In this document: piece after piece, positions 34,521 through 54,782 of the stretch
How the letters are laid out: each line of letters opens with the position of its first letter
How positions within the stretch are numbered: the stretch's first letter is position 1
DNA from: Coriobacteriia bacterium
GTDB lineage: Bacteria > Actinomycetota > Coriobacteriia > Anaerosomatales > Anaerosomataceae
NCBI GenBank assembly: GCA_030651765.1
Contig: JAUSBY010000015.1
Span: forward strand, 138,043-192,824
Direction: 5' to 3'
DNA: 54,782 nucleotides
Position numbers and translations under genes: made by a program
The notes under the pieces: generated by a model
What the model was told of the DNA's origin: nothing
Database searches by the model: none
The model's input: only the letters and a program-made list of their open reading frames with translations

Positions 34521-35372
34521 GTGTCGGCGATTCTTCTCGCGCAAGTGAACGTGTGGATGGACGCAGTCTTTATCCTGCTGTTCATCGGTGTGTGGTTGTT
34601 CGTCCTGTTCCACTTCTCCATCAGTATCCCTAAGGGTCGGTTCCGTAAGAAGTGGATCGAGGGCAAGTGGCCGGAGCACGATCATCTTCCGGTCTTCCTG
34701 CCCAAGCTCATGCACTGGATCCACCTGCTGTGCATGCTCGCCCTGGCGTTCAGCGGCCTGTACATTCGCTTCCCGTTCTTCGACGGCGGCCGTACGCCGA
34801 TGCGATGGGTCCACTACATCGCGATGACGATCGTCGGTCTGAACTACCTGTGGCGCCTGTGGTACGCGTTTCTCGCCAAGGGTCGCGACTACAAGAAGTT
34901 CGCCATCACCAAGCGCGACATTCAGTCTGCGCTCGGCGTGCTGGCGTACTACGGGTACTTCTCCGACAACAAGCCGCACGTGGCCGAGTACAACGTGATG
35001 CAGAAGATGTCGTACCTGCTCTTCGCTGTGCTCATGCTGGCACAGGGCTTCACGGGCCTGTCGCTGCTCACGCAGCCGATCCTGTTCGGCCTGTCGCCAC
35101 GCGAGGTCCTCATCGGCTGGTGGCTTGGCCCGCTCGTGGGTGGCGTTGCTGTCGCGGGTGCCTGGATGCGCGTGATGCACTACGCCATCAACTGGCTGTT
35201 CATCATCATGACCGTCGTGCACTTCTACCTGGCGGTCAACGAGGACTTCCTCATCGGCATGGACTTCTTCGGATTCAAGAAGTATCCCAAGGACAAGCTC
35301 GTGACGCATGGCCACGGTCACGGCGGGGAGCACGCAGCTCCTGCCGGGGCGGCGGCCCTCGAGGCGGAGTAG
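34521..35372 (+). CDS. Cytochrome b, formate dehydrogenase gamma (FdnI)/cytochrome b561-like
   Basis: 283 residues. Four or five TM helices carry His residues in heme-ligand positions (FHF ~31, MHWIHLL ~64-68, VMHYAINW ~218 and VVHFYL ~233). The segment HVAEYNVMQKMSYLLFAVLM closely matches the YNxxQKM region of FdnI, the diheme b subunit that passes electrons from formate dehydrogenase to menaquinone. The C-terminus is His/Gly/Ala rich. No other b-type subunit is next to the formate dehydrogenase 7 kb downstream, so this may serve it. It could equally couple the quinone pool to the three cytochromes c that follow. The start is GTG 34521; GTG 34551 or ATG 34557 are alternatives. Confidence 0.83.
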   Translation: MSAILLAQVNVWMDAVFILLFIGVWLFVLFHFSISIPKGRFRKKWIEGKWPEHDHLPVFLPKLMHWIHLLCMLALAFSGLYIRFPFFDGGRTPMRWVHYIAMTIVGLNYLWRLWYAFLAKGRDYKKFAITKRDIQSALGVLAYYGYFSDNKPHVAEYNVMQKMSYLLFAVLMLAQGFTGLSLLTQPILFGLSPREVLIGWWLGPLVGGVAVAGAWMRVMHYAINWLFIIMTVVHFYLAVNEDFLIGMDFFGFKKYPKDKLVTHGHGHGGEHAAPAGAAALEAE

Positions 35373-41861: not shown

Positions 41862-41867
41862 TACAAT
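41862..41867 (+). promoter_or_regulatory. -10 element of proximal promoter (TACAAT)
   Basis: TACAAT matches the -10 consensus at five of six positions and would start transcription near 41874, exactly where the folded leader begins (GCGTC). A TTGGACA at 41836-41842 is a poor -35 at 19-20 bases. The hexamer overlaps the right arm of the AGCCCACT/AGTGGGCT dyad, so a repressor or activator bound there would affect initiation. Confidence 0.45.
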
Positions 41868-41873
41868 GGCATA

Positions 41874-42054
41874 GCGTCTCCGAGCTTGTCGGCCTAAAGC
41901 GATGTGATCGCCACGGACTTCAAGCCGATAGGGTGTCACAGGAAACCATGACGCCTCCCGTATTTGGAAAGGAGACCTGCGGGCAAGCCCCCCGGCAAGG
42001 GGCTGCGTGCGGTGTACTCATCAGGGGTAAGGGAGGCGAGCCGATATGGCTGAA
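41874..42054 (+). promoter_or_regulatory. Structured leader RNA, candidate riboswitch (Moco/Tuco class suspected)
   Basis: Pairings I can trace: outer stem GCGTC 41874-41878 with GACGC 41950-41954; inner stem TGTCGGC 41887-41893 with GCCGATA 41924-41930; hairpin GCGAT-GTG-ATCGC 41899-41911. A second domain is closed by CGCCTCCC 41952-41959 with GGGAGGCG 42031-42038 and contains AGCCCC/GGGGCT. A small hairpin AGCC-GATAT-GGCT (42039-42051) precedes the terminator. Single-stranded CCTAAA and GGAAACC look like conserved ligand-contact segments. Because the next gene encodes a molybdopterin/tungstopterin enzyme, the Moco/Tuco class is my best guess, but I cannot run a covariance search and do not claim the class. 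Confidence 0.5.
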
Positions 42055-42233: not shown

Positions 42234-45200
42234 ATGGCTACAAGAGATCAAGATTCAGGAGGGAAGTTCCAGCTCTCACGTCGCGACTTTGTGAAAGTCG
42301 GCGCGGCTGCAGCTGCCGCGGGCGCCGTGGGCGTTGACTGGGCTGTCGCGCCTTCACGCGCGAACGCGGCCGACGTCGCGCACACGTACTCGACGACATG
42401 CCCGTACTGCTCTGCGCAGTGCGGCCAGCAGGTCGACGTTGCGGCTGACGGAACGGTGCTGGACATCTACGGCGATCCGAACAACCCCACAAGCCGTGGT
42501 GGCCTTTGCGCCAAAGGTGCAGGCGCCTACCAGCTGGTGACCAACGAGCGTCGCATCGGCGTGTCAGAGCACACGGCGGCTGTCGACGGCTTCGACTTCA
42601 CCGGCCAGGCATGGAAGCGTGTCGGTGATAGCGCCTGGACGGCCATGACGCTCGATGCTGCGATGACCGAGATCGCACCCAAGCTCGTTGCGGCACGCGG
42701 TCCGGTGGCCGATGCCGATACGCTGTACGACCTCTTCACCGCTGGCGATGTTGTCGACGAGGTGACCTACACCGGTTTCTCGGGTCTCACAACCATCAAG
42801 CTAGCCGATGGCAGCTACATGGTCGCGACCAACGGCAACAAGGCGACGCCAACCGAGCTTGCAGTTCTGGCCGCCGGCCTCCCGGGTTCGGCTGCAGCCT
42901 ACGTTGCCGCCTTCGACGGCCTTGTGTTCAAGGCCACGGATCCGGCCTGGAAGGCCAGCTACACCTTCGTCGGTCGCTCGGACCTCGGTGCGAAGATGCT
43001 TGCAGCCGGGGTTTTCGCGAACACCGCCGATATCGTGGTCGACGCCGGCGTGTACTATGCCTACGTCGTGGCCGTTACCGGCGAAATGCACGTGCTCACC
43101 TCGCCGGACATGCTGGTGTGGACGTACGACGCCCCACTTGGCAAGCCGGCCAGCGTTGGCACGATGACGTCGCCGACCGTTCTGAAGAGCGGCGCGAACC
43201 TCAAGGTCTGGTACGTCGATATCGTCGCGCAGAAGCTCCAGTATGCGTCGTTCGATGGCTCGGCGTGGTCGGCGGCCACCAACGTGACCGTCGGAGGCAG
43301 CGACCCCATCTGGTTCGTCGGCCATCCCGTCGTCTCGGCTACCAGCGCTGAGTACACTCTGTACTACGTTCTCGGTAGCGGCGGCATCAAGAAGGCCATT
43401 GCTCCGGTTGCCACGCCGGCCGTATTCGCGGCTGCAACGAACGTGTATGACGGCGCGGCGAAGTCCGAGGGCAACGTCAGCCTGGCCGCGAGCGGCATCT
43501 GCTTCTCGACCTACGCGCAGCCGGATGACGACGATATCGGGTGGGCATACAGCGATATCAAGGGCCTCGCGTTCAGCAACAACAACAACGCTCGTACGGT
43601 TATGTTCTTCGGCTCCTCTCACATGAACAACGAGCCGAACAACCTGTACCGCAAGATCATCGCCACCTTCGGTACCAGCCTGACCGAACATCAGGCCCGT
43701 ATATGACACTCGTCCACAGTGGCCGGTCTTGGCCGCACATTTGGACGAGGCGCGATGACGAACAACTGGGTGGACCTCGGATTCTCGACCTGCTTCATCG
43801 TCCAGGGCGCCAACCCCGTTGAGAACCACCCCGCGTCGATTGCGCACCTGAACTCGGCACGGTTCGACACCAACGGCCGCGGCCGCAACGCCGCTCTCGT
43901 TGTCATCGATCCTCGCCAGACCCGTACCGCCCGCATGATCAAGGCGGGGTACGACTCGACGAACACGAACGACATGCGCAAGCACGATCGCTTCGTGCGC
44001 ATTCGTCCGGGAACCAACGTCGCATTCAACAACGGCGTACTCAACTCCATCATCACGTGGATGTACGCCAACCCGACGGACCAGCGGTCCATCAACTTCT
44101 TCGCGTGGCACAACGGGACCGCAGACAACTCGCTTGCCACCCGCGCAGTCACCGCAGATGACGGCTTGGCATCCTCGGTTGCCGCCTGGCCCAAGTACTG
44201 CGACACGCGACTCAAGACCAACGCGACGGGTACGGACTACCAGCGCGAGACGGTCACCGGCGTTAACGGCAAGGCGATCTCCAACTTCCCGGTGCGGGCT
44301 GCGAACATCGAAGATGCCGAGTGCGTGTTCCAGCGTCTCAAGGCCCACGTCGCGAAGTACACGGCGGCGATCACCGCGGACATCTGCGGTTGCACCGAGG
44401 CCGATATCGCGGCCGTGCGGGACGCCTACATCGATAACAGCCGCTTCGCCAGCTCGGACTTCGGCGCTGCGGCGATGACGCAGAACGCTGCCGGCTACCG
44501 CGCCGCATGCATCATGTACGCGATGGGTGCCACGCAGTTCACGACCGGCTCGCAGGGCGTCCGCGGGTACGCGCAGATCCAGACGATCATGGGCAACATG
44601 GGGCGTGCTGGCGGCGGCATCAACGCGCTGCGCGGCATCCACAACGTCCAGGGTTCGACGGACATGGGCGTGCTGTTCGACCTGATCCCCGGCTACTCGG
44701 GGAACCCGGGCGTGGGCACCACGTACCCGAACTACTCGAACGCTCTGTTCGGCAACCGGGTGGTGGGTACGACGACGAACAGCCCGTACGTCCCGGCCAA
44801 TCTCGGTCTGCAGCAGCGCGGCTTCTACAACATGACGACCGCGTGGTTCGGCGAGCAGCAGGATGCTGTTGACACCTACAGCTCCGCTGACTTCGAGGCG
44901 CTGTACGCATGCTGGCCGAAGGGCAACGGCGTGCAGCACATCGAGTCGTTCCGCCGGATGTGCCCGACCGCTGCCGAGAATCCGACGGCCGCGTACCACT
45001 ACGCACCCACCGCCGCCGCCCCGCGCATCAGCGCGTGCGTCGTGTGGGGTCAGAACCCTGCCATTACCGAGCCGAACCAGAGCGCGGTCCGCACGGGTCT
45101 GTACAACCTCGACCTGCTGGTCGTGACGGACATGTTCGCCAACGAGACCGCGCAGTGCTCGCGCAAGTCGACTGGTGTCACATACCTGCTCCCCGCATGC

Positions 45201-46517
45201 TCGCATGTGGAAGAGTCCGGTTCGGTCACCAGCTCGGGCCGCTGGATCCAGTGGCGCGATCGTTGCCGTGCTCCCAAGGACAACAGCAAGTCGGATCTCG
45301 AGTTGCTGCTCAAGTTCGCCAAGGCCCTTGATGGTGCCAACGCGTTCAGCCACATCGAGGCCCGCTGGGCCACGATGACCAACAAGCCGGTCGGCTCCGC
45401 CTACAATGTACTGTACGGCAAGTACGGTTGGGACGGCACCGGCTCCATGGAGGCCATCAGCCTTCCTGACGCCGAGGGCGTCACGCTCAAAGGCAGCGAG
45501 CACGTAGCCGAGCAGATCTTCAAAGAGATGTGCTCACCGCTCAACGCCACGACGGGTATCCAGGGCACGCTCTGGATCTACTCGGGCAACGACACCGCGA
45601 GCGCGTACAACGCTGCCACGGGCGACAACAACCCGGCCGTCGGCATCAACTGGGGCAAGGCCAACCGCGCCAAGTCCCGCGCCGGTGCGTACGCGCAGGC
45701 GGGCACCTCCGGTCAGTACGCGCGCTACGGCTGGGCATGGTTGCTCAACCGCCGGATCTTCTACAACAACAGCGAGCTGGCTGGCGACGTCAACGACGTC
45801 TTCGTGGCTCCGGGCTTCATCGCGAGGATTCTCACCATCAACACCAACACTCTGGCCGACTGGTCGACCCTGTACCGGGCCTACAACACCCTCGCCGATA
45901 TGCCTGACGTTGGCACGAGCACCGGGATGCACGTCTACCCCGGCCGCTTCCCGGCCTACACCGAGCCGTACGAGTCGCCTCGTCCGGATCTGGTCACCAA
46001 GTGGGGCAAGAACACGGCGAATGGCTCTGCGCTGATCTTTGCGGACTCACCGGTGGGAGCGGTTGCGGACTTCCCGCTTGTGCTCACCAGCATTCGCTGC
46101 GTCGAGCACTTCCAGGGCGGCCCGATCACCCGCAACAACGCGTGGAACGTGGACGCGGAGCCCGATCCGTGGATCGAGATCAACTCGGCCGATGCCATCA
46201 AGTACGGCATCGCGGACGGCATGTGGGTCAACGTCATCACCGCGCGTGGCGACAGCATCCACACCCAGGAGGCCCTGACCGCCGGCGGCGCGCTCGCGCC
46301 GGTAGCCAACTGGACCAAGGGTTTCAAGGCGCGTGTGGGCGTCGGTACGCTGGCTAACCAGCGTGTCGCTCCCGGCACCGTCGCGATCCCGTGGCACTGG
46401 GGTGATCGTGGACTGGGCGTTGGTGCTCGTGCCAACGACCTGTGTATCGACTCGTGGGATGCCAACACCATGATTCCCGAGTTTAAGGCCTGTCTGTGCA
46501 AGATCGAGAAGGCATAA
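42234..46517 (+). CDS. fdnG: Selenocysteine formate dehydrogenase alpha subunit (FdnG/FdoG-like) with inserted propeller-like domain
   Basis: 1427 residues, read through UGA 43704-43706 as selenocysteine 491. Tat signal SRRDFVK (15-21) shows export of the folded protein. [4Fe-4S] ligands are Cys56, Cys59, Cys63 and Cys92, with CAKG after the last. The context around Sec is HQAR-I-U-HSSTVAGLGRTFGRGAMTN, matching FdnG, where Sec is residue 196. The C-terminus (PEFKACLCKIEKA) also matches FdnG. Residues ~157-450 are extra: a beta-rich segment with repeats like TSPTVLKSGANLKVWYVD and GVYYAYVVAV, resembling a five-bladed propeller. A SECIS hairpin follows the UGA. Without Sec read-through the gene would be mis-split into two ORFs of 490 and ~930 codons. 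The enzyme oxidises formate outside the membrane using bis-MGD Mo or W. Confidence 0.93.
43704..43749 (+). promoter_or_regulatory. Sec UGA codon and bacterial SECIS element
   Basis: The in-frame TGA (43704-43706) is followed by a lower stem CTCGTCC 43709-43715 with GGACGAG 43743-43749. An internal loop leads to the upper stem GTG/CAC and GCC/GGC (3' bulge of two bases) with apical loop GGTCTT (43725-43730). The GGUCU apex and the 18-base distance from UGA to it agree with my memory of the E. coli fdhF SECIS that binds SelB. The sequence also has to encode HSSTVAGLGRTFG, which explains the bulges. Confidence 0.9.
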
Positions 46518-51106: not shown

Positions 51107-52363
51107 ATGACGGCTTCGGCCCGGCGCGACCGGCGTCCGGACGGCCCAAGGAGCGCGCGTCGCAGACGCGCGTGGCCTCGTAGGCTGCGCGATCACCTGC
51201 GTGGCCTCGACCGCCCGAGGAAGACCGCGCTCATCGTCGGGCTCGTGCTCGTGCTCGGCGGCGTGCTCCTCATTGTGCTGGCGCCACCGCCGACGACAGC
51301 CATCCCCACCATCGGCACGCCGCGCGAAGACGCGCCGCAGCTCCGCTACATCCGCTCGCTTCCCGATGCCGGGGACCCGGTGCTCTCGCGTCCCGTCGGC
51401 GTGGCGGTCGGCGGATCGTACCTGTACGTGGCCGATTCGGGAGACGCGGTGGTGCGTGTCTTCTCCACCGCAGGGCCGGACGCCGGCGAGATCGGCCGCG
51501 GAGCGCTTAAGGTGCCGACGTACCTTGCGCGCGACATGACCGCGGGAACGCTGCTCGTGACCGACCGCGAGTTGCGCGCGGTGCTGCGCTTCGGCGAGGA
51601 CGGCGAGCCGCTCGGCGAGATCGTGCCGTCCGTGGAGACGAGCGCCACGTGGGAGCCCCTGGGGATCGCTGTCGACGGGCATGGCGCCGTTGCGGTGACC
51701 GACACCTCGGCGACGCACAGGGTGCTCCTGATGGACAGGGCCGGCCAGGTGCGGCGGACCTACGGCGGCCCTGTGAGCGCGGGCACCGCCGGTGGCGTGA
51801 GCGTGTCGCTTGACTACCCCAACAGCGTCGGCTTCTGGGGCGAGGACCTGTGGGTGGCGGATTCCAACAACCGCAGGGTGCTCGTGTTCGACGCTGAAGG
51901 CGCGATGAAGCGCCTGATCCGCGTGGACGGCATCGCCCGTGGCCTGGCCCTGCTCGAAGGCGAGAGCGAGGACGACCGCTTCGTGGCGGTAGCCGATGCG
52001 CTCACGAGCGAGATCGTGCTGCTCGATGCCGAGGGCGCTGAGGTCACCCGCTACGGCGGGCCCGGTGGCTCCGCGGGGCAGCTGGCATACCCCAACGACG
52101 TGGTGTTCGATGCTCGTACGGGGCAGCTGTTCATCGCCGACACGGGCAACGCGCGCGTCCAGGTGTGGGGCGTGACATGGCCGGACGAGAGTGACGGTCC
52201 GTTGATCTCGTTGCCGGAGTCTATTCTCTCGGCAATGAGCTTGGCGGGCGCTCTGCTGATGGCGGTGGGCATCGCGCTTGCTGGTATAGCGCTATGGCCG
52301 CGTCGTGAGGCGCGGAGTACGATCGACGAGGTGGGCGATATCGAGTCGTTCACGGCCGACTGA
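51107..52363 (+). CDS. NHL-repeat beta-propeller membrane protein (second copy)
   Basis: 418 residues. The very basic N-terminus (RRRRAWPRRLRDHLRG) is followed by a TM helix (~41-60), an NHL six-bladed propeller (~80-360; repeats such as PVGVAVGGSYLYVADSGDAVVRVF, YPNSVGFWGEDLWVADSNNRRVLVF, YPNDVVFDARTGQLFIADTGNARVQVW) and a C-terminal TM helix (~375-397). The layout and several blades correspond to the protein at 40216, but the cytoplasmic tail here is only ~20 residues and lacks the PIN-like part. ATG 51107 (TTG 51104 in frame). Such propellers often accompany multiheme cytochromes and may scaffold them. Confidence 0.84.
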   Translation: MTASARRDRRPDGPRSARRRRAWPRRLRDHLRGLDRPRKTALIVGLVLVLGGVLLIVLAPPPTTAIPTIGTPREDAPQLRYIRSLPDAGDPVLSRPVGVAVGGSYLYVADSGDAVVRVFSTAGPDAGEIGRGALKVPTYLARDMTAGTLLVTDRELRAVLRFGEDGEPLGEIVPSVETSATWEPLGIAVDGHGAVAVTDTSATHRVLLMDRAGQVRRTYGGPVSAGTAGGVSVSLDYPNSVGFWGEDLWVADSNNRRVLVFDAEGAMKRLIRVDGIARGLALLEGESEDDRFVAVADALTSEIVLLDAEGAEVTRYGGPGGSAGQLAYPNDVVFDARTGQLFIADTGNARVQVWGVTWPDESDGPLISLPESILSAMSLAGALLMAVGIALAGIALWPRREARSTIDEVGDIESFTAD

Positions 52364-52394
52364 CGGCGACCGGCATCGCCGAGACGGAGTCCGC

Positions 52395-54782
52395 TTGAGC
52401 ATCAGGGGTAAGCATCGCATCGCCACCGCGCTCGTCGTGGCGCTCGTGGCCGCGCTCGTACCGTTCGCAGCGCCCGTACCGGCCGTGGCGGCACCGGTGG
52501 CCACACCCTCCGCGCAGCTGCGCTCGGTGTCGATGATCGATGCCTCGACCGCCGTGGCCGTGGCCACCAACGGGACGATCTGGCGTTCCACGGCGGCGGG
52601 CAACGGCTGGGAGAGTGTTCGCGGGGCCGACGCCTACGACTTCCGCGCGGTGGACTTCTGGAACGCGACCAAGGGCGTGGCCGTCGACCTTCAGGGCAAG
52701 GTGGCTTGGACCACGGACGGTGGCGTGACGTGGACGAACGTGGACTTCACGCCGTACGTGGACATGGACGGCCTCACCGCCCCTAAGAGCCATAACGGGC
52801 TTGCGTGTATCCCGGGCACCACGGACGCCGCCATCAGCGTGGGCGGGGATCCGGACATCTTAGACGACACCAACATCGGCGCGGTCGCCATGCGCACGTG
52901 GGGGCAGATCTCCTTCTGGCAGAACGCATTCTTCCAGGCGCAGCCGTACAAGTTCGACATCGGCGATGGTCAGATGGTGGACATCGGCGAGGGCGAGTTC
53001 CTCGACGTGAGCTTCGTCAACGGCACGCAGGGCTGGGCCGTCGGGCGCGATACCTACGAATTCGGCGCCCACAAGCCCGCCCTCTACCGCACCACCAACA
53101 CCGGCGGCTCCTGGACCGCCCTTTCCCTCGGCTATCCGTCGACCTTGAACGCGGTCGCGTTCGGTTCTGCAACAGCCGGTGTCGTGGCAGGCCAGCTCGC
53201 CGCTGACGGCGCCCCGCGCGCCTACTACACCACCAACGGCGGGAGCACGTGGTCTGAGGGCACGCTCCCGGCGGGCATCGGCATCCCGCGCGCGCTCCAC
53301 ATGACGAGCGCGACGAACGGCTGGCTCGCCGGTGACGGCGGGACGCTCCTGCGCACCACCGATGGCGGCCAGACGTGGACGGCGTGCGTCAAGCCGGCCG
53401 GGTACACGGCCAACCTCTACGACGTGGAGCTCATCGGCACGACCGGAATCGCGGTGGGCGATAGTGCCGTGCTCACCACCACCGACGGCATCACGTGGTA
53501 TCGCCCCGACATCACGCCGCCGACGGTGGTGATCGTCTCGACCTCGCATCCGGTAGCGACCACGTGGTACGCCACGCGCGAGGTCGCCGCCACGCTCTCG
53601 GCCAGCGACTCCTCGGGTATCGTGGGCTACGCCGTCGTGCTCGACCAGAGCGCCGCGACCATCCCGGACGCGGTCGTCACGCAGGCCGGCGCCGCCTACA
53701 CCGCCACGCTACCGTCCGACGGTGAGTGGTACCTGCACGTGCGAGCCGTCGATACCCGGGGCAACTGGAGCGGCACGCAGCACCGCCTCTTCAGGGCCGA
53801 CACGGCGCCGCCGGTGACGACCTCTGACGCGGCGGGTCCGTACGCGGGCTCGGCGACGATCACGCTCAGCCCCTCCGATCCCACACCGGGCTCGGGCGTG
53901 GCAAGCACGAACTGGTCACTTGACGGTGGCGGTTCGGGCACTGGGACCACGGTGAACGTGACTGCCGAGGGCGACTGGACGCTCCGCTACTACTCGACGG
54001 ATGTCGCGGGCAACGCCGAGACCGAGAAGACGGCGACCTTTGCGGTGGAGATCGCACCCGGCGCGCCGGCGATCGCGTCGGCCACGCACCCGAACCAGGC
54101 GACCTCATATGCCAGCGGGGCCTTCTCGGCCAGTTGGACGGCAAGCGATGCGTCGGGTGTCGCGGGCTATGCGGTAGCGTTTGACGCGAGTGCGAGCACA
54201 GTGCCCGCGCAGAGCGTGACGCAGACCGGGTCCTCGTTCTCGGCGACGGTTCCCGCGGGCACCACGCGCTACCTGCACGTGTGCGCCGTGGACACGCGCG
54301 GCAACTGGGGATCGGCGTCGCACTACAAGGTCACGGTGGGCGCGCTCACCACCACGGCGGTGGCCGGCGCCGATCGCATCGCGACGGCCATCGCGGCCGC
54401 CAAGGTCGCCTTCCCGTCGGGCGCCGGCACGGTCGTGATCGCAACCGCGCGCAACTGGCCCGACGCCCTCGGCGGCGCCGCGCTCGCAGGAGCCGTGGAC
54501 GGTCCGATCCTGCTGACCGAGCCGACCGCGCTTCCCTCGACGGTGGCTCAGGCCATCTCCGACCTCGGCGCGAGCAAGGCCATCATCTTAGGCGGGACCG
54601 CCGCGGTCTCCTCAGGCGTGCAGACGGCGCTTGGCACCGCGCTCGGCGGGGCCGGCAACGTGACCCGCATCGACGGGGCCGACCGCTACGAGACCGCACG
54701 CAAGGTGGCAGCCGAGACCGTCAAGCGGCTCGGCACCTTCTCCGGCACGGCGTTTATCGCCACTGGTGCGAACTTCCCCGAC
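52395..54782 (+). CDS. Large cell-surface protein with BNR-like propeller, duplicated Ig-like modules and cell-wall-binding (CWB2) repeats (truncated at window end)
   Basis: At least 796 residues, open at base 54782. Start TTG 52395 (GGAG at ~6 bases) gives a clean signal peptide (RIATALVVALVAALVPFAA). Residues ~40-375 contain BNR/Ycf48-like blades (TTNGGSTWS, TTDGGQTWT, TTDGITWY). Two ~85-residue copies follow (~375-460 and ~560-650), both with ASD-SG-V-GYAV and LHV-AVDTRGNW. They flank a bacterial Ig/OmpL47-like segment (DTAPPVTTSDAAGPYAGSA). From ~653 come CWB2-type repeats (VAGADRIATAIAAAKVAFP, NWPDALGGAALAG). These repeats attach proteins non-covalently to Gram-positive cell-wall polymers, so the protein is exported and surface-held. 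Confidence 0.88.
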   Translation, partial: MSIRGKHRIATALVVALVAALVPFAAPVPAVAAPVATPSAQLRSVSMIDASTAVAVATNGTIWRSTAAGNGWESVRGADAYDFRAVDFWNATKGVAVDLQGKVAWTTDGGVTWTNVDFTPYVDMDGLTAPKSHNGLACIPGTTDAAISVGGDPDILDDTNIGAVAMRTWGQISFWQNAFFQAQPYKFDIGDGQMVDIGEGEFLDVSFVNGTQGWAVGRDTYEFGAHKPALYRTTNTGGSWTALSLGYPSTLNAVAFGSATAGVVAGQLAADGAPRAYYTTNGGSTWSEGTLPAGIGIPRALHMTSATNGWLAGDGGTLLRTTDGGQTWTACVKPAGYTANLYDVELIGTTGIAVGDSAVLTTTDGITWYRPDITPPTVVIVSTSHPVATTWYATREVAATLSASDSSGIVGYAVVLDQSAATIPDAVVTQAGAAYTATLPSDGEWYLHVRAVDTRGNWSGTQHRLFRADTAPPVTTSDAAGPYAGSATITLSPSDPTPGSGVASTNWSLDGGGSGTGTTVNVTAEGDWTLRYYSTDVAGNAETEKTATFAVEIAPGAPAIASATHPNQATSYASGAFSASWTASDASGVAGYAVAFDASASTVPAQSVTQTGSSFSATVPAGTTRYLHVCAVDTRGNWGSASHYKVTVGALTTTAVAGADRIATAIAAAKVAFPSGAGTVVIATARNWPDALGGAALAGAVDGPILLTEPTALPSTVAQAISDLGASKAIILGGTAAVSSGVQTALGTALGGAGNVTRIDGADRYETARKVAAETVKRLGTFSGTAFIATGANFPD

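What the first reader, a model, noticed from the sequence alone, without database searches (positions are those of the whole stretch)
42234..46517. One selenoprotein gene, not two ORFs: UGA 43704 encodes Sec491 of a formate dehydrogenase
Reading through TGA gives AR-I-U-HSSTVAGLGRTFGRGAMTN, the Sec loop of FdnG/FdoG. A SECIS hairpin with GGUCU apex sits 18 bases after the codon. Standard gene callers would stop at 43706 and report a truncated N-terminal fragment plus a headless molybdopterin oxidoreductase starting near 43719. The cell must then contain selA, selB, selC and selD, which are not in this window.
Basis: partly seen in the sequence, partly recalled or inferred. Interest (0 to 1): 0.8.

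Follow-up and report, generated by a model that had tools for sequence, protein, structure and literature searches.

The report
Selenoprotein formate dehydrogenase with inserted propeller
The two apparent genes are one exported, selenium-containing formate-oxidising enzyme, as in many anaerobes; less ordinary is a 290-residue propeller-shaped domain sitting inside it, which close relatives lack.

Summary
TGA 43704-43706 is a selenocysteine codon inside one 1427-residue gene (42234-46517). The residue aligns with the catalytic selenocysteine of solved formate dehydrogenases, and the SECIS hairpin carries GGUCU at the same distance as in E. coli fdhF. UGA and GGUCU are kept in 36 of 36 homologous genes examined. 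The genome holds selA, selB, selD (itself with an in-frame TGA) and tRNA-Sec. This part is textbook biology.

Residues 157-447 (42702-43574) are an insert, modelled as a five-bladed GH43-like beta-propeller. It matches no Pfam family and occurs in 5 of 69 genomes searched in the order, each time inside this enzyme; in one it sits at a different site. Presence is scattered on the enzyme tree (4 changes). The insert shared with genome G013 is 69% identical although the bodies are 54%. Against same-genus G001, which lacks the insert, FDH synonymous distance is 0.61, neighbouring genes 0.13-0.26. I infer that the module moves by recombination between alleles. What it binds is unknown.

The parts
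41866..41990 (+). Molybdenum/tungsten cofactor (Moco) riboswitch aptamer upstream of the gene
   Evidence: Rfam RF01055, 78.5 bits (gathering 36); also found at the same locus in G001, G002 and G013
42234..46517 (+). Single selenoprotein gene: formate dehydrogenase-type molybdopterin oxidoreductase, 1427 aa, TGA read as Sec491
42270..42332 (+). Twin-arginine (TAT) export signal (residues 13-33)
   Evidence: Pfam PF10518, 22.9 bits against cut-off 22.7; TIGR01409
42381..42542 (+). [4Fe-4S] domain of the molybdopterin oxidoreductase (residues 50-103)
   Evidence: Pfam PF04879
42702..43574 (+). Inserted domain (residues 157-447), predicted five-bladed GH43-like beta-propeller, absent from most relatives; replaces a linker of about 10 residues
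43704..43706 (+). UGA selenocysteine codon (Sec491)
43709..43749 (+). Bacterial SECIS hairpin, apex GGUCU at 43725-43729
46077..46271 (+). Molybdopterin dinucleotide-binding domain (residues 1282-1346)
   Evidence: Pfam PF01568
46534..47409 (+). Ferredoxin-type [4Fe-4S] electron-transfer subunit, next gene downstream
   Evidence: Pfam PF12838 and PF13247
47406..48650 (+). Multihaem c-type cytochrome (6 CXXCH)
   Evidence: conserved beside the FDH in G001, G002, G013
34521..35372 (+). Cytochrome b561-type membrane protein
   Evidence: Pfam PF01292
35308..39160 (+). Three multihaem c-type cytochromes (6, 12 and 20 CXXCH) upstream in the same orientation

Best explanation
42234-46517 is one gene for a TAT-exported, selenocysteine-containing formate dehydrogenase catalytic subunit. 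SelB with tRNA-Sec reads UGA 43704 as Sec by means of the SECIS just downstream. The protein carries an extra 290-residue beta-propeller domain, inserted between the [4Fe-4S] domain and the Sec region in a loop that in relatives is a linker of about 10 residues. The enzyme probably passes electrons from formate through the adjacent iron-sulphur subunit to the multihaem cytochromes of the same locus. The propeller is part of the mature protein. I infer that it acts as a non-catalytic binding module (for a glycan or a protein partner) on the outer face of the enzyme, and that it is gained or lost by recombination between FDH alleles. Shown by computation: the Sec codon, SECIS, sel genes, insert boundaries, patchy distribution, and discordant similarity of insert and body. 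Inferred: formate as substrate, electron path, surface exposure, retention of the propeller in the mature protein, binding role, route of transfer.
For: Sec491 aligns with the Sec/Cys position of 1h0h and 9qm0 in phmmer alignments. SECIS spacing is identical to E. coli fdhF, and UGA and GGUCU occur in 36 of 36 homologous genes. selA, selB, selD and tRNA-Sec are in the genome. TAT signal, Fe4S4, molybdopterin and dinucleotide-binding domains. Relatives such as G002, G012, G021, G023, G008 and G004 match residues 1 to about 160 and about 450 to 1427 as near-contiguous pieces without the insert (linker sequences of 8 insert-free genes). Insert model pLDDT 74.8, pTM 0.77; Foldseek 3qee E 1e-7; VIA Z 14.0 to 9fj8 and 7zei (4.3-4.4 A over 234-240 residues). 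Insert identity G000-G013 is 69.4% against body 54.5%, whereas G013-G029 is 31.6% insert against 62.7% body. Insert dN/dS G000-G013 is 0.21. The body tree needs 4 changes for the insert site and rejects G000+G013 as one clade (p-AU 2e-114). FDH dS against G001 is 0.61; nine neighbouring genes 0.13-0.26.
Against: NCBIfam FDH-N model score is below its cut-off, so the exact substrate is not secured by family membership. The last 40 residues of the insert model are below pLDDT 50, and TM-scores to GH43 folds are about 0.5. dS near 1 is close to saturation, and the FDH zones were chosen after seeing identities, although the whole-gene figure was not. The four insert-bearing N-site rows form the same unrooted quartet in body and insert data as far as I can read it from the body tree and the identity table, so the case for transfer rests on relative distances and on absence in near relatives, not on conflicting quartet topology; a separate insert tree was not finished. 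Nine other close pairs show FDH/FeS dS ratios of only about 1.0-1.8.
Confidence: 0.85

Rival explanations
1. Two separate genes: a truncated N-terminal protein ending at 43706 and a headless oxidoreductase starting at GTG 43719, with no readthrough.
For: A mechanical ORF caller gives exactly this split.
Against: Fe4S4 domain and most of the molybdopterin domain would be separated from each other; UGA and SECIS are conserved in 36 of 36 homologous genes; the genome encodes the full Sec machinery.
Confidence: 0.02
2. The propeller insert is ancestral in this enzyme and has been lost many times; no horizontal transfer.
For: All four N-site inserts sit at the same loop; the unrooted quartet of the four does not conflict with the body tree.
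Against: Loss would have to leave a linker of about 10 residues cleanly and repeatedly; G000-G013 inserts are far more alike (69%) than the other pairs of inserts (23-36%) although these two bodies are among the most distant; the same-genus relative G001 and the nearest body to G013 (G010) lack it.
Confidence: 0.25
3. The insert is removed before the enzyme works, as an intein or an intron.
For: It is in frame, precisely bounded and absent from relatives, and occurs at two different sites in this enzyme family.
Against: No intein, homing endonuclease or other Pfam family in the window insert; no intron family among Rfam matches of the window, where only the Moco riboswitch is found; propeller fold; dN/dS 0.21 on the insert.
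Confidence: 0.04
4. The enzyme is not a formate dehydrogenase but another member of the molybdopterin family, for instance a sulphur-compound or metal reductase, that shares the Sec loop.
For: Score below the FDH-N cut-off; in a cultured Anaerosomatales strain the assignment of an FdnG-like complex to formate dehydrogenase or to thiosulphate/polysulphide reduction was left open by the authors (PMC9686372, passages).
Against: Best NCBIfam and PDB matches are formate dehydrogenases and include the Sec-His loop; formate is an electron donor for both cultured strains.
Confidence: 0.12

Closest known systems
Sec-containing formate dehydrogenase FdhA of Desulfovibrio type (9qm0, 8cm4, 6sdv, 1h0h)
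   Same: TAT-type leader, Fe4S4 and molybdopterin domains, Sec-His active-site loop; best PDB matches (E 3e-78)
   Different: 1427 residues against about 1000; extra 290-residue propeller at a short loop (chain residues about 132-151 of 9qm0); locus with four multihaem cytochromes
FdnG/FdoG of E. coli (1kqf), TIGR01553
   Same: Sec codon, domain order; TIGR01553 is the best NCBIfam match
   Different: Below the equivalog cut-off (382.8 of 814.2 bits); propeller insert; the next gene but one is a multihaem cytochrome where E. coli has the FdnI membrane subunit (recalled)
GH43/GH62/GH117/GH130 five-bladed beta-propellers (3qee, 7zei, 9fj8)
   Same: Predicted fold, VIA Z about 14
   Different: About 10-14% sequence identity, no Pfam match; inserted within an oxidoreductase; none of the 25 invariant columns of the five-row alignment is a glutamate, and the only invariant aspartates are D6 and D72, so I infer, without a superposition of active sites, that it is probably not a hydrolase
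Molybdopterin oxidoreductase within the multihaem cluster of Parvivirga hydrogeniphila (MCL4079376-90)
   Same: By the authors' description, a molybdopterin oxidoreductase encoded among multihaem cytochromes in an order of Coriobacteriia (PMC9686372, passages)
   Different: Sequence not compared here; the word selenocysteine does not occur in the paper's main text

Membership tests
Bacterial selenoprotein (UGA-Sec) | In-frame UGA at a position where homologues have Sec | tested here: met
Bacterial selenoprotein (UGA-Sec) | SECIS hairpin directly 3' of UGA with conserved apical G/GU | tested here: met
   covariation only modest
Bacterial selenoprotein (UGA-Sec) | selA, selB, selC and selD in the genome | tested here: met
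Bacterial selenoprotein (UGA-Sec) | Selenium incorporated into the protein | not testable with these tools
   needs mass spectrometry or 75Se labelling
Formate dehydrogenase-N alpha (TIGR01553) | Score above the curated equivalog cut-off (814.2 bits) | tested here: not met
   382.8 bits, best family listed
Molybdopterin oxidoreductase (DMSO reductase) superfamily | Fe4S4, Molybdopterin and Molydop_binding domains above Pfam cut-offs | tested here: met
Formate dehydrogenase, by function | Formate oxidation or CO2 reduction | not testable with these tools
   inferred from the Sec-His loop alignment
GH43-like five-bladed beta-propeller (insert) | Fold | tested here: met
   predicted model only: Foldseek E 1e-7, VIA Z 14
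GH43-like glycoside hydrolase (insert) | Pfam-level sequence similarity | tested here: not met
   no family at E <= 10 for the window insert
GH43-like glycoside hydrolase (insert) | Catalytic Asp/Asp/Glu | tested here: inconclusive
   only D6 and D72 are invariant acids in five rows; active sites were not superposed
Intein | Hint/splicing domain | tested here: not met
   no Pfam family in the window insert

The most novel reading that the evidence does not exclude
The propeller is a transferable module of a surface enzyme: FDH genes in this order swap it, at two different loops, by allelic recombination under pressure on the enzyme's outer face (attachment to glycans, minerals or partner cells, or evasion of phage), so that a core respiratory enzyme doubles as a variable surface protein. 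In keeping with this, FDH differs between two congeners far more than all nine neighbouring genes compared, with zones of 51-62% amino-acid identity next to zones of 82-94%.
Probability: 0.3. Interest if true: 0.6.

Novelty: new variant of a known kind. Interest (0 to 1): 0.4.

Why it matters
The Sec reading corrects what an ordinary gene caller would split into two broken genes, and links formate oxidation to a multihaem cytochrome locus in a little-studied actinobacterial order. The insert matters more: it would be a case in which a catalytic respiratory subunit gains and loses a whole folded domain and is exchanged between species faster than its neighbours. If the enzyme is exposed at the cell surface, this makes a testable case for selection on a metabolic enzyme as a surface structure.

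Tried and rejected
Two separate genes: rejected. Intein or intron: no support. Transposition scar: no exact direct repeat of 8 or more bases between the 60-base surroundings of the two insert junctions; of 267 random pairs of places in the gene 95 have one, so this neither supports nor excludes transposition. Foreign base composition of the insert: none seen (63.8% GC against 65.0% and 64.0% in the rest of the gene). Viral origin: no relative in viral contigs by pattern scan, no convincing PHROG match; Foldseek hits among viral structures are general propellers and tail proteins. PDB sequence search with the insert alignment gave only weak matches (best E 0.12). Search for the domain elsewhere: 5 of 69 genomes of the order, 5 of 396 in the class, 2 of 396 in the phylum, one of which is the window's genome and the other (G158) a weak 99-position match not followed up. 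These counts depend on HMMER filters: in a leave-one-out test with default filters the G003 insert was not found by a model of the other four, while with filters off it scored 78.6 bits against at most 10.1 for 1000 shuffles. Divergent copies elsewhere may therefore have been missed. The genome-contig scan used one pattern and gave 3 loci.

AlphaFold of the G003 insert was submitted as a single sequence and gave a useless model (pLDDT 36); the aligned version A3 should have been used. The position of the insert relative to the active site was not determined: no tool gave coordinates, and the whole protein exceeds the size limit.

Trees and counts: 36 FDH genes were extracted from 37 loci (L021-L057), all chosen by carrying the AR-x-[Sec/Cys]-HS motif; L051 gave none because its piece lacks the Sec region. 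The tree used 35 rows, L055 (a different FDH paralogue) being left out. In one search, 9 of 12 pairs other than G000/G001 could be compared with the FeS gene; three involving L042 could not. Papers: four searches combining formate dehydrogenase, molybdopterin oxidoreductase or oxidoreductase with propeller and/or insertion terms returned 2, 0, 0 and 0 papers; the two listed were not opened and by title and abstract concern other subjects. Two further searches on this lineage and selenocysteine gave one paper on lake sediments (not opened) and none. So I found no paper that reports this insert, in a library that lacks most subscription journals. One search read passages only.
Full report
Observation. 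The frame from ATG 42234 runs to TGA 43704-43706 and on to the stop at 46517. With TGA as Sec the product has 1427 residues. Pfam finds a TAT signal, the Fe4S4 domain, the molybdopterin domain and the dinucleotide-binding domain, in the order of formate dehydrogenases. phmmer against the PDB puts Sec491 on the Sec/Cys position of solved FdhA chains, with E-values to 3e-78. The NCBIfam model TIGR01553 is the best match but at 382.8 bits stays below its cut-off of 814.2, so I call it a formate dehydrogenase-type enzyme and treat the substrate as inferred.

Selenocysteine. The hairpin after the codon folds at -24.1 kcal/mol (z -2.93 in a 54-base stretch; z -0.26 in a 101-base stretch). GGUCU lies 18 bases after UGA, exactly as in E. 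coli fdhF fetched as a control. In 36 of 36 genes extracted from the own genome and relatives, TGA and GGTCT at that offset are kept; 35 of these are genes of the same type and one (L055) a more distant FDH. The genome has SelA, SelB, SelD with its own in-frame TGA in AG-U-AAKWGP, and tRNA-Sec with anticodon TCA.

The insert. A search of 61 genomes with the protein showed that most of the relatives with a close match cover residues 1 to about 160 and from about 450 onward as two near-contiguous pieces. Residues 157-447 replace a linker of about 10 residues between the helix ending LVAARG and the strand VMFFGSSH. The insert is present at this site in G000, G013, G029 and G048, that is 4 of 69 genomes of the order. 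A related domain sits in the FDH of G003 at another loop, after YSGNPG. Its kinship with the others was tested by leaving it out of the model: 78.6 bits with filters off, best of 1000 shuffles 10.1; default filters miss it. A profile of all five finds it in 5 of 69 genomes of the order and 5 of 396 of the class, in each of these genomes one match, inside FDH. One of these titles says Coriobacteriia; that the order is Anaerosomatales is my inference.

Fold. AlphaFold on the five-row alignment gives pLDDT 74.8 and pTM 0.77, mostly strands, with the last 40 residues uncertain. Foldseek and VIA place it with five-bladed propellers of GH43, GH62, GH117, GH130 and kin (E 1e-7, TM about 0.5; Z up to 14.0 with 4.3-4.4 A over 234-240 residues; that these families share the five-bladed fold is recalled). 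There is no Pfam family. Only two acids, D6 and D72, are invariant in the five rows, so a hydrolase role looks unlikely, though active sites were not superposed.

Origin. On a tree of 35 enzyme bodies with the inserts removed, the four N-site carriers lie apart (4 changes), and G000 with G013 as one clade is rejected (p-AU 2e-114). The inserts of G000 and G013 are 69.4% identical while the bodies are 54.5%; for G013 and G029 the figures are 31.6% and 62.7%. The insert between G000 and G013 shows dN/dS 0.21 with dS 1.1, which speaks for purifying selection. In G001, of the same genus, the locus is syntenic including the Moco riboswitch. Nine neighbouring genes have dS 0.13-0.26, but FDH has 0.61: 0.27 at its 5' end, 0.30 around the Sec codon and 0.48-1.13 in the other zones examined. 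Among nine other close pairs for which both could be measured, FDH/FeS dS ratios are about 1.0-1.8, so the pair G000/G001, with 3.8, stands out. The simplest reading is that one of the two species received most of its FDH gene from a divergent allele. Quartet topology alone does not prove transfer of the insert, as noted under evidence against.

Setting. Upstream lie a cytochrome b561-type protein and three multihaem cytochromes with 6, 12 and 20 CXXCH; downstream an Fe-S subunit and a 6-CXXCH cytochrome. In passages of PMC9686372, cultured Anaerosomatales grow on formate with Fe(III) or thiosulphate, and a molybdopterin oxidoreductase of Parvivirga lies in a multihaem cluster. I infer that the present enzyme feeds electrons from formate into such a chain outside the membrane.

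Verdict. The given finding is correct and ordinary. The inserted propeller makes this a new variant of a known kind, of moderate interest.

Noticed in passing
window 42702-43574: Inserted 291-residue beta-propeller domain inside the formate dehydrogenase, absent from most relatives; described in the main report because it changes what the gene is.
   Followed up: yes
G000:C13:12178-12637 (L009, L013): A second tRNA-Sec (TCA) directly after a fragment of a second selB C-terminus (84% DNA identity to the C8 copy) at the end of a 12.6 kb contig; may be a contaminating contig of a related strain.
   Followed up: partly
L010:1450-2600: SelD is itself a selenoprotein (in-frame TGA in AG-U-AAKWGP).
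   Followed up: no
L048 (G036), between the NALRG and WGQNP motifs: Another FDH of this clade carries different extra segments in its middle region that look like phage or surface-protein domains by eye; Pfam names none of them above cut-off.
   Followed up: partly
window 42234-46517 against L029 (G001): FDH is far more diverged between two congeners than its neighbours on both sides (dS 0.61 against 0.13-0.26).
   Followed up: partly
G000:C1:24040-26697: A second, shorter Sec-type FDH gene (about 40% identical in its best piece, with an in-frame TGA) in the same genome.
   Followed up: no
window 52305-54782: Large protein with BNR/YCF48-like repeats and a cell wall binding 2 domain, running off the window end.
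   Followed up: no
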